The notes under the pieces were generated by a model. It worked only from the letters and a program-made list of their open reading frames with translations, did not search any database and was not told where the DNA came from. From Gammaproteobacteria bacterium (GTDB lineage: Bacteria; Pseudomonadota; Gammaproteobacteria; Arenicellales; Poriferihabitantaceae), in contig JALCBG010000002.1 in the NCBI GenBank assembly GCA_028066695.1, forward strand, positions 6,983 to 70,982: a stretch of 64,000 nt of DNA, read 5' to 3'. Position numbers and translations under genes: made by a program. Shown one piece after another: positions 27,314 to 40,321 of this stretch. The stretch's first letter is position 1. Every line of letters starts with the position of its first letter.

Positions 27314-28183
27314 ATGGACGCCGCCGCCGCAACCGCCCGCGCTTTTGACGCGCTCTCCCGGCCGCGCCTGGTCGCGCTGGATTCGCTCGCGCTGATTGAA
27401 GTCGGCGGCGAAGACGCGCGCGAATTTTTGCAGGCGCAATTGGGCGGTGATGTCGGCGCGGCGCAACCGGAGCGCGCGCAATTGAACGCCTACTGCAATC
27501 CGAAGGGGCGGGTGATCGCGGCGTTGCGGCTGATTCCGCGCGCCGAAGGTTTTTGGCTGGTCGCGCCGGCCGAGTTGGCCGACAAACTGATCATGCGATT
27601 GAAAATGTTCGTGTTGCGCGCGAAAGTGGAAATCGCGCACTCGCAGTCGCAACTGTTCGGGGCGATTAATTGCAACGGCGAAGAGGGAATTTCACACGCG
27701 GAATTGGACGGCGACACCGCCGTCTCGCGAAAAATTCTCATCGGCGCACCCGCGGAAAAATCCGCCGAAAAAACCGACGCATTCTGGCGCCTCGCCGACA
27801 TTCTCGCCGGGCTGCCGCAGGTGTATGCGCCGACCGCCGAACAATTTCTCCCGCAGGCGCTCAACTTGGATTTGACCGGCGGCGTCAGTTTCACCAAAGG
27901 CTGTTTTCCGGGCCAGGAAATCGTCGCGCGCCTGCGCCACCGCGGCAAGGTCAAGCAGCGCATGTTCGCGCTCTTTTTGCCGGACGCAACGCCACCCGCG
28001 CCCGGCGCGCCGCTGCTCGCCGAAGATTCCGAACAAAAAATCGGACAGGTCGTCGACGCGGTCGCATGCGACGGCGGCAGCATCGCCGGCGTGGTTCTGC
28101 CCGCGGCCGCGCCGGACGGCGCAAAAAATTCGGCGCGCATAAAACTCCCCTACGAAATCCCCGAGACCGCCGAAGCCGCGTGA
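27314..28183 (+). CDS. ygfZ: YgfZ/GcvT-domain folate-binding protein
   Basis: 289-residue folate-binding protein that supports repair or assembly of certain Fe-S enzymes. The diagnostic motif is KGCFPGQEIVARLRHRG, with the conserved Cys. The N-terminal domain (LIEVGGEDAREFLQAQLGGDV, AYCNPKGRVIAALRLI) resembles aminomethyltransferase folds. The ATG at 27314 excludes a long upstream in-frame extension that would read into sdhC. It lies divergent from the sdh operon, which also requires Fe-S assembly, and shares a GTGA overlap with dtd. Confidence 0.93.
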   Translation: MDAAAATARAFDALSRPRLVALDSLALIEVGGEDAREFLQAQLGGDVGAAQPERAQLNAYCNPKGRVIAALRLIPRAEGFWLVAPAELADKLIMRLKMFVLRAKVEIAHSQSQLFGAINCNGEEGISHAELDGDTAVSRKILIGAPAEKSAEKTDAFWRLADILAGLPQVYAPTAEQFLPQALNLDLTGGVSFTKGCFPGQEIVARLRHRGKVKQRMFALFLPDATPPAPGAPLLAEDSEQKIGQVVDAVACDGGSIAGVVLPAAAPDGAKNSARIKLPYEIPETAEAA

Positions 28184-28629
28184 AAATCCTGCTGCAGCGC
28201 GCGGCGCGCGCCGAAGTCGCCGTCGGCGGCGAAACCATCGCGCGCATCGGGCGCGGCGTTTTGTTGTTGGTCGGTTTCGGCCGCGAAGACGGCGATGAAA
28301 ATGCGCCGCCGGATTTGGCGCGCGCCGCCGAAAAAATCGCGCAACTTCGCATCTTCCCCGACGAGCACGGCAAGTTGATGCATTCGCTGCGCGACACCGG
28401 CGGCGCCGCGCTGGCCGTGCCGCAATTCACGCTGCACGGAAACGCGCGCAAGGGCCGGCGCCCGGATTTCACCGCCGCGCTCGCGCCCGATGCGGCGCGC
28501 GCGCATTTTGAAGAGTTTGTCGCCGCGCTTAAGGAAACCGCGCTTCGCGTGGAGACCGGCCGGTTCGGCGCAGACATGCGCGTCACTTTAATCAACGACG
28601 GGCCATTCACCCTACTGATGGATTTTTAG
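28180..28629 (+). CDS. dtd: D-aminoacyl-tRNA deacylase
   Basis: Hydrolyses mischarged D-aminoacyl- and glycyl-tRNAs; 149 residues. N-terminal MKILLQRAARAEVAVGGE is typical. The two active-site motifs appear as VPQFTLHGNARKGRRPDF and INDGPFTLLM. The first has Pro where SQFTL usually carries Ser, and the second has ND-G-PFT instead of NGPVT; the Gly-Pro core is kept. GTG start overlapping the ygfZ stop. Ends 4 bases before the convergent methyltransferase gene. Confidence 0.93.
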   Translation: MKILLQRAARAEVAVGGETIARIGRGVLLLVGFGREDGDENAPPDLARAAEKIAQLRIFPDEHGKLMHSLRDTGGAALAVPQFTLHGNARKGRRPDFTAALAPDAARAHFEEFVAALKETALRVETGRFGADMRVTLINDGPFTLLMDF

Positions 28630-28633
28630 CGGG

Positions 28634-30043
28634 TCATTCCGGCCACTCGCGAGATTTCATGACTTTGTCGTAATACTTCTTGCTGATGATGCCGTCGCGA
28701 AGATTTGCCTCCATAAGTTTTTTCATGGAGCGATTGCTTTTGCGGTTGTTGCAAGTGCGGCAAAGCAGTTGCTTGTTTTCATCAAACTCGATCTCGTGGT
28801 CTCCGGTTTTGCGAGGAATGATGTGGTCAACATCCATATCGCTGTGCGGCTTCCATGCGCCGCAACCAATGCACTCGCCTTCGCATTCACCATACATGCG
28901 GTTCTTCAGTTCCTCTTTTGAGGAAATGGAATGAATCGGCTTTGGCGCGCGAGTGCGCTGGTTGATTTTCGGCGACAGCATGTCGCCGGGCAACTGCACT
29001 TTCATGCGCTTGGCCACCAAAACCACCGCTTCGGAGGACAAGTCAATGCCGACCCATTCCCTGCCAAGCACTTCCGCCGCAACACAAGTGGTGGCGCAGC
29101 CGCAGAAAGGATCCAGTACTAGGTCGTCGCGATCGGTGGTCATGCTGATAATGCGCTTCAGCAATTCCAGAGGTTTGCGCGTGGGATAGTCGACGCCTTT
29201 GAGCGGCTCCGCCGCGTCAATGTCATCCCAAAAATTGCCGACCAAAACCCCCTTGGCGTCGGAGAGGTAGTTCTTTTTGTAGAACAGTCCGCCCTCTTTC
29301 AATTGCACCAACAGCCCCTGTGCATGCAGTTCACGCATCTTGGCTTCGGTGCAACTCCACTCGCGGGTCACACCCTCAAACTCATAGAGCATCCCGCTGC
29401 CGTTCTTCGCCATGCCAACGGCATAGTACTTCCCCTTCTCGTCTTCGAAACGGTAGTTGGAGAGGTCGTCATATTCGCGGTATTGCGGACGAAACTTGTG
29501 CTTCGCGCTTTTGCGGTAGTAGTAGATGTAGTCAAAGCTGCGCGGCAGTTGCTTTTTGGCAATGTTGCCGACGCCCTTGGGTTTGCGGTTCCACGCAACC
29601 ACATTGACCATGTTTTTTGGTCCGAAAATCGCATCCAGAACAAAGCGGAGGTGCGGGCCCATGACATCATCGCACTGCAGAACCAGCGCACCGCTCGGCT
29701 TGAGAATGCGATGCATCTCAAGCAAGCGAATGCTCATGTAGACGCAGTAGGAAATATTTTTCCCATTGCGCGAGCCGTCCAGATCCTGCACCGTCCGCAG
29801 CACCGAATACAACTTAGCATTCTTTTTGGAGGCCAGCCGCCCCCACCATGCGATGTCAATGTCGGCCAGCGTCCAAGTGTCTTTGAAATGCGCGGACACA
29901 TTGCCGTCATCGTCGAAGGCAACCCAGCTCTTGTTTGAGTTGTAGGGCGGATCCAGATAGACCAGGTCAACGCTGGCATCCTCAATGCCGCGCAGCACCG
30001 GCAGGTTGTCGCTGATGAAAATGGTGGAGGGCTTCACGCTCAT
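28634..30043 (-). CDS. DNA N6-adenine/N4-cytosine methyltransferase fused to HNH nuclease domain
   Basis: 469 residues. The N-terminal two thirds are a beta-class amino-methyltransferase: catalytic [10 protein letters not shown] (31-40) precedes the SAM-binding DPFCGCATT (311-319), and the [13 protein letters not shown] segment is typical. The C-terminal 80 residues form an HNH domain with zinc Cys pairs C391/C394 and C428/C431 and the core [11 protein letters not shown] (404-414). Substrate and target site are unknown. The HNH might cut DNA, giving a single-chain restriction-modification enzyme, or only bind it. The gene is visibly A+T-richer than its neighbours, which suggests transfer. No separate restriction gene adjoins it. 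Start: ATG at 30043 with a TATAAT only 9 bases upstream and no ribosome site. Confidence 0.88.
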
Positions 30044-30051
30044 GGTGGGCG

Positions 30052-30057
30052 ATTATA
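30052..30057 (-). promoter_or_regulatory. TATAAT box immediately upstream of the methyltransferase-HNH gene
   Basis: Perfect -10 hexamer on the minus strand ending 8 bases before the ATG, with no visible -35 box and no Shine-Dalgarno sequence between. If used, the mRNA would be leaderless or nearly so. Confidence 0.4.
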
Positions 30058-30185: not shown

Positions 30186-31490
30186 ATGACCCGCCAAGAG
30201 CAAATTGATTCGCTGCAGCGCGAATGGAAAGAAAACCCGCGCTGGAAAGACATCACCCGCGGCTATGGCGCCGAAGACGTGGTGCGCCTGCGCGGCTCGG
30301 TGCAGCCCGAACTCACCTACGCGGCGCGCGGCGCGCGCAAACTCTGGGCGCAGGTGCACGGCGCCGCCAACAAAGGCTATGTCAACTGCCTCGGCGCGCT
30401 GACCGCCGGGCAGGCGGTGCAGCAGGCCAAGGCCGGCGTGGAGGCGATTTACCTGTCCGGCTGGCAGGTCGCGGCCGACAACAACACCTCCGAGACGATG
30501 TATCCCGACCAGTCGCTGTATGCGTGCGACTCGGTGCCGGCGATGGTGCGGCGCATCAACAACGCTTTCGCGCGCGCCGACCAGATTCAATGGCAGCGCG
30601 GCATCGGGCCCGGCGACGACGGATATGTCGACTACTTCCTGCCCATCGTCGCCGACGCCGAGGCCGGATTCGGCGGCATCTTGAACGCGTTTGAACTGGC
30701 GAAGGGCATGATCGCCGCAGGCGCGGCCGGCGTGCATTTTGAAGACCAGTTGGCCGCGGTGAAAAAATGCGGGCACATGGGCGGCAAGGTGCTGCTGCCG
30801 AGCGGCGAGTCGGTGCAGAAACTGATCGCGGCGCGCCTCGCCGCCGATGTGCTCGGCGCGCCGACGTTGGTGCTGGCGCGCACCGACGCCGAGGCCGCAA
30901 ACCTGCTGACTTCCGATGTGGACGAAAACGACCGCCCGTTCCTCACCGGCGAGCGCACTTCCGAGGGATTTTTCCGCACGCGCAACGGCCTTGAGCAAGC
31001 GGTGTCGCGCGGCCTGGCATACGCGCCCTACGCCGACTTGCTTTGGTGCGAAACCGCGACGCCGGATTTGGGTTTCGCGCGCGAGTTCGCGCAGGCGGTG
31101 CGCGAGCGCCATCCCGGCAAGTTGCTCGCCTACAACTGCTCGCCGTCGTTCAACTGGAAAAAGCACCTGGACGACGCGGCGATCGCCTCGTTTCAGGATG
31201 AAATCGCCGCGCTCGGCTATGTCTACCAGTTCATCACGCTGGCCGGCATTCACAACATGTGGTTTCACATGTTTGACCTGGCGCACGCCTACGCGCGCGG
31301 CGAGGGCATGCGCCACTATGTCAACAAAGTGCAGCAGCCCGAATTCGCGGCGGCCGCCGACGGCTACACCTTCGTCGCGCACCAGCAGGAAGTCGGCGCC
31401 GGCTACTTTGACGATGTGACCACCACGATACAGGGCGGCGCGTCCTCGGTGACCGCGCTCGCCGGCTCCACCGAAGAGGAGCAGTTTTAG
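30186..31490 (+). CDS. aceA: Isocitrate lyase
   Basis: Splits isocitrate into glyoxylate and succinate, opening the glyoxylate bypass for growth on acetate, fatty acids or other C2 units. The 434-residue protein has the catalytic [29 protein letters not shown] and [14 protein letters not shown] segments. Start at 30186 with AAGGTG seven bases upstream; longer in-frame readings are the antisense end of the methyltransferase gene. aceK follows after 44 bases. Malate synthase is not in the window. Control likely acts at the palindromic promoter upstream. Confidence 0.97.
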
Positions 31491-38566: not shown

Positions 38567-39334
38567 TCAGTCCCGTATTTTATACCGGGCGGAATCAGCC
38601 ATGCGGACGCTATTGTAATCGTTGACATCGTCAAAAACAAACCGCCAAATGCAAAAAATCTCCCCCCGTTTTTCAAAGAAAATCAGGTCAACGGGCTTGT
38701 CGGTGTGGGCGCTCCATTGGCGAAACGGATAATACAGTTGCCGAATAATGACATTGGTGGTCGCGGCATTTTTCGCCTCCACCAGCAGCACGCGGTTTTT
38801 GCCTTCATAGCCGGCATCGACTTCGGTTTGCACGCTTTTGGCGGTGATTTTGCTTTTGTGCTTGCCCGCGGCAAATGAAAAAAGCGGGGTGTATTTGCGC
38901 CCGCGTATGGTCAGGATGTAACTGTCATCGCCCATGTAGGTGCGAATCAAACTCGCGGCATATGCATAGTCCAAATGCTGCATTTCGGAGTTGCCGACAC
39001 TCGTGGTGTCGGGGGTAAATCCGATTTTGGATGAATACGTTTGCACTTTGCCGGTGATTTCCGGGATGTCCACATAGCCCTCGCCCTGAACCACCGCATA
39101 CACGCCGTTTTTGATTGGAAGGAGAAAGAGGCCGTTGTCGCGGAATACCCGCGGACGGTCTTCGCGGGTGTCTTGTTTGCACAAAATCCGCACTTCCTTT
39201 TCGCCGGTGGCTTTGAAGTCTTGGCAGGATTTTTTGATGTCCTCGGCGGTGAGAGTGAACGGCGATTTCTTAAAATCATGCTTCAGGATTTTGTGGTCCT
39301 TGCAGATTTTCGCCCAGGATTTGTCGGAAGCCAT
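38567..39334 (-). CDS. Type II restriction endonuclease (PD-(D/E)xK type)
   Basis: 255-residue nuclease encoded 9 bases after the methyltransferase. The likely catalytic core is EVDAGYEGKNRVLLVEAKN, giving Asp173, Glu186 and Lys188 of a PD-(D/E)xK fold. The preceding GNSEMQHLDYAYAASLIRTYM and following IIRQLYYPFRQW segments match a family of type II enzymes I recall only by pattern. Target sequence unknown. A+T-richer than the chromosome around it. Confidence 0.8.
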   Translation of the reverse strand: MASDKSWAKICKDHKILKHDFKKSPFTLTAEDIKKSCQDFKATGEKEVRILCKQDTREDRPRVFRDNGLFLLPIKNGVYAVVQGEGYVDIPEITGKVQTYSSKIGFTPDTTSVGNSEMQHLDYAYAASLIRTYMGDDSYILTIRGRKYTPLFSFAAGKHKSKITAKSVQTEVDAGYEGKNRVLLVEAKNAATTNVIIRQLYYPFRQWSAHTDKPVDLIFFEKRGEIFCIWRFVFDDVNDYNSVRMADSARYKIRD

Positions 39335-39343
39335 GACGCGCGC

Positions 39344-40321
39344 CTACGCGGCAAACATTTCTTCAAAATACGCCGCCGCCGGCTCGGCCACGGCATTTTC
39401 GGAAACCGTAAAGATTTCCCGCGTCATCGTTTCTTTGATCGTTTCTTTGATGCGCTTTACCGCCATGCCGGAAAGGTATTTTTTCTCGGCGTCGATTCCG
39501 ACAAAATTCCTGCCGTGGCGGAGCGCGGCCACCCCGGTGGTCGCGCTGCCGCAGAAGGGGTCGAGCACGATGTCATTTTCATTCGTGCATGCCAGCACGA
39601 TTCGCTCCAAAAGCGACACCGGCTTTTGCGCGGGATGTTTCCCGAATTTTTTCTCGTCTCTTTTCGGCGTATTGATCGCCCAGACGCTGCGCATTTGCCG
39701 GTCGGATTTTTTGATGAAGTCGCCGGGCCATTCCGACTGCTTCATCAGATCGTAATTGAATTTGTGCTTTGCTTTTTTGGTTTTGCGCGCCCACAGCAAA
39801 GTCTCGTGACTGGCGGCAAACATCCTGCATGCCAGATGGGGGGATGCATTCGGCTTATACCAGCAGATTTCATTGAGCAAATGCCACCGCTGGCTTTGCA
39901 ATGCAAATCCGCAAATGTAAATGGAGTGGTAGGTGCCTGACACCCACAGAGAGCCGTTTTCCTTCAGCACTCTGCGGCATGCTTCAATCCAGTTGTAGTG
40001 GAAGTCGTAATCTTTCTCGAAGCCGTTGCTCTTGTCCCACGCGCCCTTGTTCACGCTGACGCGCTTGCCGGCATGGCAGCTGAAACCGCCGTTGGAAAGA
40101 TTGTAGGGCGGGTCGGCGAAAATCAAATCCACGCTGTTTTCCGGCAGGGAATTGAGCACCGTCACCGCGTCCCCGTTGAAGAGCCGCACTCCCCTGTCTT
40201 TGAAAAAAGACCGCGTCCCTTTGCTTTTCGCGGGCTTTTTCCGGCGCAGACTTGCATTTGCCGGAGCGCCGACGGCGCGCCCTGCTTTGGCGTGGATTGT
40301 TGTGGTTTGGTGGTCTGCCAT
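39344..40321 (-). CDS. Site-specific DNA methyltransferase (beta-class, probable N6-adenine)
   Basis: 325-residue modification enzyme of the island. DPPYNLSNGGFSCHAGKR (70 onward) precedes DPFCGSATTGVAALRHGRNFVGID (254 onward), the beta-class order; HPAQKPVSLLERIV is typical. DPPY favours adenine methylation. The first 35 residues are basic and may include a false start. It begins 47 bases after the tdm stop and precedes the nuclease gene, so the host is methylated before cutting. Recognition site not deducible. Confidence 0.9.
   Translation of the reverse strand: MADHQTTTIHAKAGRAVGAPANASLRRKKPAKSKGTRSFFKDRGVRLFNGDAVTVLNSLPENSVDLIFADPPYNLSNGGFSCHAGKRVSVNKGAWDKSNGFEKDYDFHYNWIEACRRVLKENGSLWVSGTYHSIYICGFALQSQRWHLLNEICWYKPNASPHLACRMFAASHETLLWARKTKKAKHKFNYDLMKQSEWPGDFIKKSDRQMRSVWAINTPKRDEKKFGKHPAQKPVSLLERIVLACTNENDIVLDPFCGSATTGVAALRHGRNFVGIDAEKKYLSGMAVKRIKETIKETMTREIFTVSENAVAEPAAAYFEEMFAA

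What the first reader, a model, noticed from the sequence alone, without database searches (positions are those of the whole stretch)
28634..30043. Beta-class DNA methyltransferase fused to a C-terminal HNH domain, without a partner nuclease
DPPY and DPFCGCATT methylase motifs are followed in one chain by a zinc-stabilised HNH module with a DVDHIIP core. This could be a single-polypeptide restriction-modification or methylation-dependent defence enzyme, or a mobile-element epigenetic gene. It is A+T-richer than its surroundings, sits between housekeeping genes, and has a TATAAT so close that the mRNA may be leaderless.
Basis: partly seen in the sequence, partly recalled or inferred. Interest (0 to 1): 0.62.

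Follow-up and report, generated by a model that had tools for sequence, protein, structure and literature searches.

The report
One-gene restriction-modification enzyme with swappable parts
This gene most likely makes a single protein that both marks the cell's own DNA and cuts unmarked invading DNA, and close relatives show that its target-reading part and its cutting part are exchanged independently, a little-described build of a familiar bacterial defence.

Summary
Window 28634-30043(-) encodes a 469-aa beta-class DNA methyltransferase (probably N6-adenine) with a C-terminal zinc HNH nuclease, lies between dtd and aceA with no partner nuclease, and is A+T-rich (54% GC against 64% in its flanks). 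It is no one-off: its 2.08-Mb genome holds five such fusions and genus-mates more. All 20 HNH fusions examined keep the catalytic and zinc residues. In the same genomes the same methyltransferase carries GIY-YIG (T5orf172) or Mrr-like PD-(D/E)XK nucleases instead. Target-recognition regions are exchanged between copies and across nuclease types; one tandem pair is 95-100% identical in DNA over most of its length and about 50% inside this region. Sister genomes show empty sites: these are compact inserts at core-operon junctions. In a distant relative an HNH fusion is the passenger of an IS1595 transposon (three copies, 8-bp target duplications). Best explanation: a single-chain restriction-modification enzyme that works like Type IIC but has a beta-class methyltransferase and a C-terminal, interchangeable nuclease. 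Cleavage, methylation and specificity are inferred, not shown. A strict promoter scan finds nothing, so leaderless transcription is unproven. New variant of a known kind.

The parts
28634..30043 (-). methyltransferase-HNH fusion gene, 469 aa
   Evidence: ORF; Pfam N6_N4_Mtase 4.6e-39 and HNH 4e-08
29591..30043 (-). N-terminal catalytic module (residues 1-151), with motif IV DPPY at 29942-29953
   Evidence: module split; alignment
29189..29590 (-). variable region between motif IV and motif I (residues 152-285), inferred target-recognition region
   Evidence: the part that is exchanged between relatives
28964..29188 (-). second methyltransferase module (residues 286-360), with motif [10 protein letters not shown] at 29087-29113
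   Evidence: module split; invariant columns
28730..28882 (-). HNH nuclease domain (about residues 388-438): C391, C394, D406, H407, N423, C428, C431, N432, K435
   Evidence: Pfam HNH/HNH_5; same signature in 20 of 20 HNH fusions; invariant columns
30052..30057 (-). TATAAT, 8 nt before the start codon; possible -10 element
   Evidence: sequence; strict promoter scan negative
28180..28629 (+). dtd (D-aminoacyl-tRNA deacylase), left flank, convergent; stop codon 4 nt from the stop of the fusion gene
   Evidence: translation; assignment by eye; empty site in G002
30186..31490 (+). aceA (isocitrate lyase), right flank, divergent
   Evidence: ORF; assignment by eye; empty site in G002

Best explanation
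A self-contained, single-chain restriction-modification enzyme that works like Type IIC. One variable region (residues 152-285) recognises a short DNA sequence; the beta-class methyltransferase methylates it (probably N6-adenine); the C-terminal HNH domain cuts DNA whose site is unmethylated, probably by transient dimerisation. Specificity evolves by exchange of the recognition region, and the cutting domain is itself exchangeable (HNH, GIY-YIG or PD-(D/E)XK). The gene spreads as a compact insert. Shown from sequence: domains, intact catalytic residues, module exchange, empty sites, no partner gene. Inferred: both activities, their shared specificity, phage restriction, how the window copy moved.
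For: Domains. HNH catalytic and Zn residues in 20 of 20 fusions; dN/dS of the nuclease part below 1 (0.29 and 0.48 in the two unsaturated HNH pairs, 0.12-0.13 in two GIY pairs). Five HNH fusions in the genome, more in genus-mates. Same chassis with GIY-YIG/T5orf172 or Mrr_cat nucleases. Cross-type pair L050 (HNH)/L046 (GIY): recognition region 80% identical against 51% and 56% in the catalytic parts and 14% in the nuclease (Fisher p 1.7e-5). Tandem L053 copies: mostly 95-100% DNA identity outside, 47-54% in the core of the recognition region, 72-92% transitions. No partner nuclease at the HNH sites read. Empty sites: dtd-aceA in G002, prs-rplY in three genomes, pfkB-ispH in G002, glycosylase/cysteine desulfurase in G002.
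Against: No activity is shown. The window member is divergent (33-41% identity to the genus HNH fusions) and no relative in the set shares its recognition region closely (best 35%). The AlphaFold model is poor (mean pLDDT 53, HNH part below 50). Known Type IIC enzymes mostly have an N-terminal PD-D/EXK and a gamma-class methyltransferase (PMC4081073). All genus data are draft assemblies without names.
Confidence: 0.72

Rival explanations
1. A free-standing homing-type mobile gene: the nuclease cuts empty sites so that the gene is copied in, and the methyltransferase protects the host from stray cuts.
For: HNH and GIY-YIG are common homing folds; the genes are inserts with empty sites in sister genomes; patchy distribution.
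Against: Paralogues sit at unrelated junctions (dtd-aceA, sucB-lpd, trpA, ilv, hdr), which a single long homing site would not explain; PD-(D/E)XK serves in the same position; in G208 movement is explained by an IS1595 transposase with TIRs and 8-bp duplications.
Confidence: 0.1
2. An orphan (regulatory or anti-restriction) methyltransferase whose HNH domain is only a DNA-binding relic.
For: Single gene without partner; many solitary methyltransferases exist; divergent HNH in the window member.
Against: Catalytic residues invariant in 20 of 20; nuclease part constrained where measurable; the domain is replaced by other active-looking nuclease folds rather than lost.
Confidence: 0.1
3. A passenger that mainly serves a mobile element (addiction or stabilisation), defence being secondary; the window copy is a remnant of an IS1595 insertion.
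For: G208: three 99.8-99.96% identical 2.5-kb IS1595 elements with the fusion gene as passenger; L051 lies beside a fragment that looks by eye like an IS1595 transposase (no Pfam hit).
Against: No IS1595 transposase in the window's genome; no inverted repeats beyond a 9-bp match at the window borders; most genus copies are free of transposases. It does not conflict with the restriction-modification chemistry.
Confidence: 0.15
4. A methylation-dependent (Type IV-like) nuclease in which the methyltransferase fold reads rather than writes methylation.
For: HNH domains occur in modification-dependent enzymes such as TagI and McrA (PMC12707154).
Against: Methyltransferase catalytic motifs are intact; no known reader domain was found.
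Confidence: 0.03

Closest known systems
Type IIC (loosely Type IIG) restriction-modification enzymes, e.g. Eco57I, MmeI
   Same: Methyltransferase and nuclease in one chain sharing one specificity module; some work without a separate methyltransferase (PMC4081073).
   Different: Most have an N-terminal PD-D/EXK and a gamma-class methyltransferase (PMC4081073); here the methyltransferase is beta-class and the nuclease C-terminal and HNH.
BtgZI
   Same: Same order: N-terminal methyltransferase, C-terminal nuclease (PMC4081073).
   Different: Alpha-class methyltransferase and a PD-D/EXK variant.
Methyltransferase-Mrr_cat fusions of Streptomyces phages (Snorlax gp48) and other bacteria
   Same: Same chassis, 37-40% identity over residues 8-348 to the best phage matches.
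   Different: Nuclease is PD-(D/E)XK (Mrr_cat), not HNH.
HNH restriction enzymes (KpnI, PacI, Hpy99I)
   Same: Zn-stabilised HNH fold used for restriction (PMC4081073).
   Different: Nuclease is a separate protein from the methyltransferase (own knowledge).
IS1595-family transposons with passenger genes (tIS)
   Same: The G208 relative is such a passenger: TIRs and 8-bp duplications as described for this family (PMC5704250).
   Different: The window copy has no transposase and no clear TIRs.

Membership tests
Type IIC restriction-modification | nuclease and methyltransferase domains in one polypeptide | tested here: met
Type IIC restriction-modification | intact methyltransferase motifs | tested here: met
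   DPPY and DPFCGCATT
Type IIC restriction-modification | intact nuclease catalytic residues | tested here: met
   20 of 20 HNH fusions; dN/dS
Type IIC restriction-modification | one specificity module serves both activities | tested here: inconclusive
   a single exchangeable region is present; that it serves both activities is inferred
Type IIC restriction-modification | both activities demonstrated | not testable with these tools
   needs biochemistry
Type IIC restriction-modification | majority layout: N-terminal PD-D/EXK plus gamma-class methyltransferase (usual, not strictly defining; BtgZI departs from it) | tested here: not met
   beta-class motif order and C-terminal HNH; PMC4081073
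Type IIG | cleavage stimulated by or dependent on AdoMet | not testable with these tools
   needs biochemistry
Homing endonuclease gene | insertion interrupts a long recognition site shared by the copies | tested here: inconclusive
   copies lie at unrelated junctions; no recognition site known
IS1595 passenger gene (window copy) | IS1595 transposase with terminal inverted repeats and 8-bp duplications | tested here: not met
   no PF12762 match in the genome, no clear repeats at the borders; met in G208

The most novel reading that the evidence does not exclude
These are self-spreading one-gene restriction-modification units: the interchangeable nuclease itself helps the gene invade operon junctions, while recognition-region exchange lets many copies coexist in one small genome.
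Probability: 0.08. Interest if true: 0.85.

Novelty: new variant of a known kind. Interest (0 to 1): 0.5.

Why it matters
A beta-class methyltransferase that accepts three unrelated nuclease folds at its C-terminus, with the recognition region exchanged independently, would be a natural toolkit for making restriction enzymes of new specificity, and a compact defence gene that needs no partner. Its multiplication in one small-genome lineage, as inserts in core operons, gives a clean set for testing how single-gene restriction systems spread and change specificity.

Tried and rejected
Phage island or plasmid origin: viral contigs gave no relative; phage matches cover at most about 75-78% of the query in the rows listed and only 3 plasmid records reach 80%, of which the rows seen are 22-28% identical; the best phage match carries Mrr_cat, not HNH. 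IS1595 as the vehicle of the window copy: no transposase in G000 and only a 9-bp inverted match, GCGGGTCAT/ATGACCCGC, at its borders, which may be chance. Leaderless promoter: no promoter above the threshold. Structure: AlphaFold from a shallow five-row alignment gave a poor model, so no fold search was made. HNH similarity to Cas9d and IscB models is far below their cut-offs and generic. Literature searches found no beta-class methyltransferase-HNH enzyme, but the library lacks most subscription papers and REBASE was not searched, so absence is not proof.

Full report
The ORF lies at 28634-30043 on the minus strand, 469 aa, ATG start. Pfam finds a DNA methylase (N6_N4_Mtase, 4.6e-39) over residues 25-341 and an HNH nuclease (4e-08) over 391-438, both above cut-off. 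Motif IV (DPPY, residue 31) precedes motif I (DPFCGCATT, residue 311) with a variable stretch between them, the beta-class order; DPPY rather than SPPY points to N6-adenine (own knowledge). The gene has 54.0% GC against 64.4% in its flanks (profile). It lies between dtd and aceA and no nuclease gene is adjacent. A TATAAT ends 8 nt before the ATG, but a strict scan finds no promoter in the region.

It is one member of a multi-copy family. The window's genome (2.08 Mb, 89 contigs, 92% complete) holds five methyltransferase-HNH fusions, on contigs C70 (window), C41, C39, C31 and C1. Genus-mate G001 holds three full matches to the methyltransferase-HNH region plus one partial, G003 five plus partials; five other genomes of the family (G008, G009, G010, G012, G013) hold one each. 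Elsewhere it is rare: 3 of 368 other genomes sampled in the class (G208, G069, G120) and none of 398 others sampled in the phylum. All 20 HNH fusions examined keep the C-x2-C, DH, N and C-x2-CNxxK signature. dN/dS of the nuclease part is 0.29 and 0.48 in the two HNH pairs where dS is not saturated and 0.12-0.13 in two GIY pairs. That argues against a relic.

The cutting domain is exchangeable. The same methyltransferase is followed at the same point by a GIY-YIG-type domain (T5orf172, MUG113) in L046, L048, L053 and others, and by a PD-(D/E)XK domain (Mrr_cat) in L036 and L037, with the same motif seen by eye in L035, L038 and L049. The window's own genome mixes HNH and Mrr-type fusions.

The recognition region is exchangeable too. 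L050 (HNH, G003) and L046 (GIY, G001) share 80% of this region against 51% and 56% of the catalytic modules and 14% of the nuclease (Fisher p 1.7e-5). The tandem copies in L053 are 100% identical in DNA for the first 240 nt, 73-83% over the next 180, 47-54% over the core of the region, and return through 72% and 92% to 95-100% for the rest. Within-type averages show the same: catalytic modules 51-68%, recognition region 23-24%. Assembly error in draft genomes cannot be wholly excluded for tandem copies.

The genes are compact inserts. In genus-mate G002 dtd and aceA are about 126 nt apart, against 1556 nt in the window, of which 1410 are the ORF: the insert is the ORF plus about 20 nt. Other empty sites: prs-rplY in G000, G001 and G002 where G003 has a tandem GIY pair; pfkB-ispH in G002 where G001 has a GIY fusion; the L031 site in G002; sucB-lpd nearly contiguous in G000 where G001 has an HNH fusion. 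Other members lie between livH and livM and before nuoJ. At one junction two contigs of the window's assembly are 99.85% identical over 2726 nt and then differ: C31 carries the HNH fusion, C40 a PLD-type nuclease gene resembling NgoFVII, so the junction carries alternative cargo.

One vehicle is known. In G208, a closed 2.16-Mb chromosome of the same class, the HNH fusion is the passenger of an IS1595-family transposon: three copies, 99.84-99.96% identical over about 2.54 kb, each with the transposase, terminal inverted repeats beginning GGGAATTATATACCCGATTACAC, and 8-bp direct repeats AAATTAAA, TAAATTTT and TTATTTTA read from the borders. That matches the features reported for IS1595-type elements (PMC5704250). 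The window's genome has no match to the IS1595 transposase family, so how its copies moved is unknown.

Mechanism. Type IIC enzymes combine nuclease and methyltransferase in one protein; most have an N-terminal PD-D/EXK and a gamma-class methyltransferase, BtgZI an N-terminal alpha-class methyltransferase and a C-terminal nuclease, and cleavage is thought to need transient dimerisation (PMC4081073). A single-chain enzyme methylates as a monomer at low concentration and would gain cutting on assembly (PMC12707154), which would let one gene establish itself safely in a new host. The window protein fits this mode of action with a beta-class chassis and a C-terminal HNH. I therefore say that it works like Type IIC, with confidence 0.72; full membership cannot be settled without biochemistry. 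The five literature searches made here found no described beta-class HNH member, within the limits of an open-access library and without REBASE.

Noticed in passing
window 38567-40321 (-): A separate two-gene cluster: a CcrM-like beta-class methyltransferase (39344-40321) followed by a DUF6996/DUF6997 protein (38567-39334) that may be its restriction enzyme; also A+T-rich.
   Followed up: partly
L033 993-3718 and L064 1275-4000 (contigs C31 and C40 of the window's genome): 99.85% identical flank over 2726 nt that diverges at one junction: methyltransferase-HNH in C31, PLD-type NgoFVII-like nuclease in C40. Strain variants or a duplication.
   Followed up: partly
L107 5885-8420, L108 6133-8676, L109 5991-8533: Three near-identical IS1595 transposons carrying a methyltransferase-HNH passenger in one closed chromosome, with 8-bp target duplications.
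   Followed up: yes
L053 5359-7983: Tandem methyltransferase-GIY-YIG genes between prs and rplY, near-identical outside the recognition region and about 50% inside it.
   Followed up: yes
[quoted passage not shown] G003 shows further near-identical copies on the same contig.
   Followed up: partly
L066 about 1797-2455: G002 has a different NPPF-motif methyltransferase-like gene between sucB and lpd, where G001 has a methyltransferase-HNH fusion.
   Followed up: no
L124 1465-3111 (Streptomyces phage Snorlax): Gene annotated 'DNA methylase' encodes a methyltransferase fused to an Mrr_cat nuclease, close to the serine integrase gene: a possible phage-borne single-gene restriction system.
   Followed up: partly
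L051 6321-6725: Fragment beside a methyltransferase-HNH gene that looks by eye like a decayed IS1595-type transposase; no Pfam match.
   Followed up: partly
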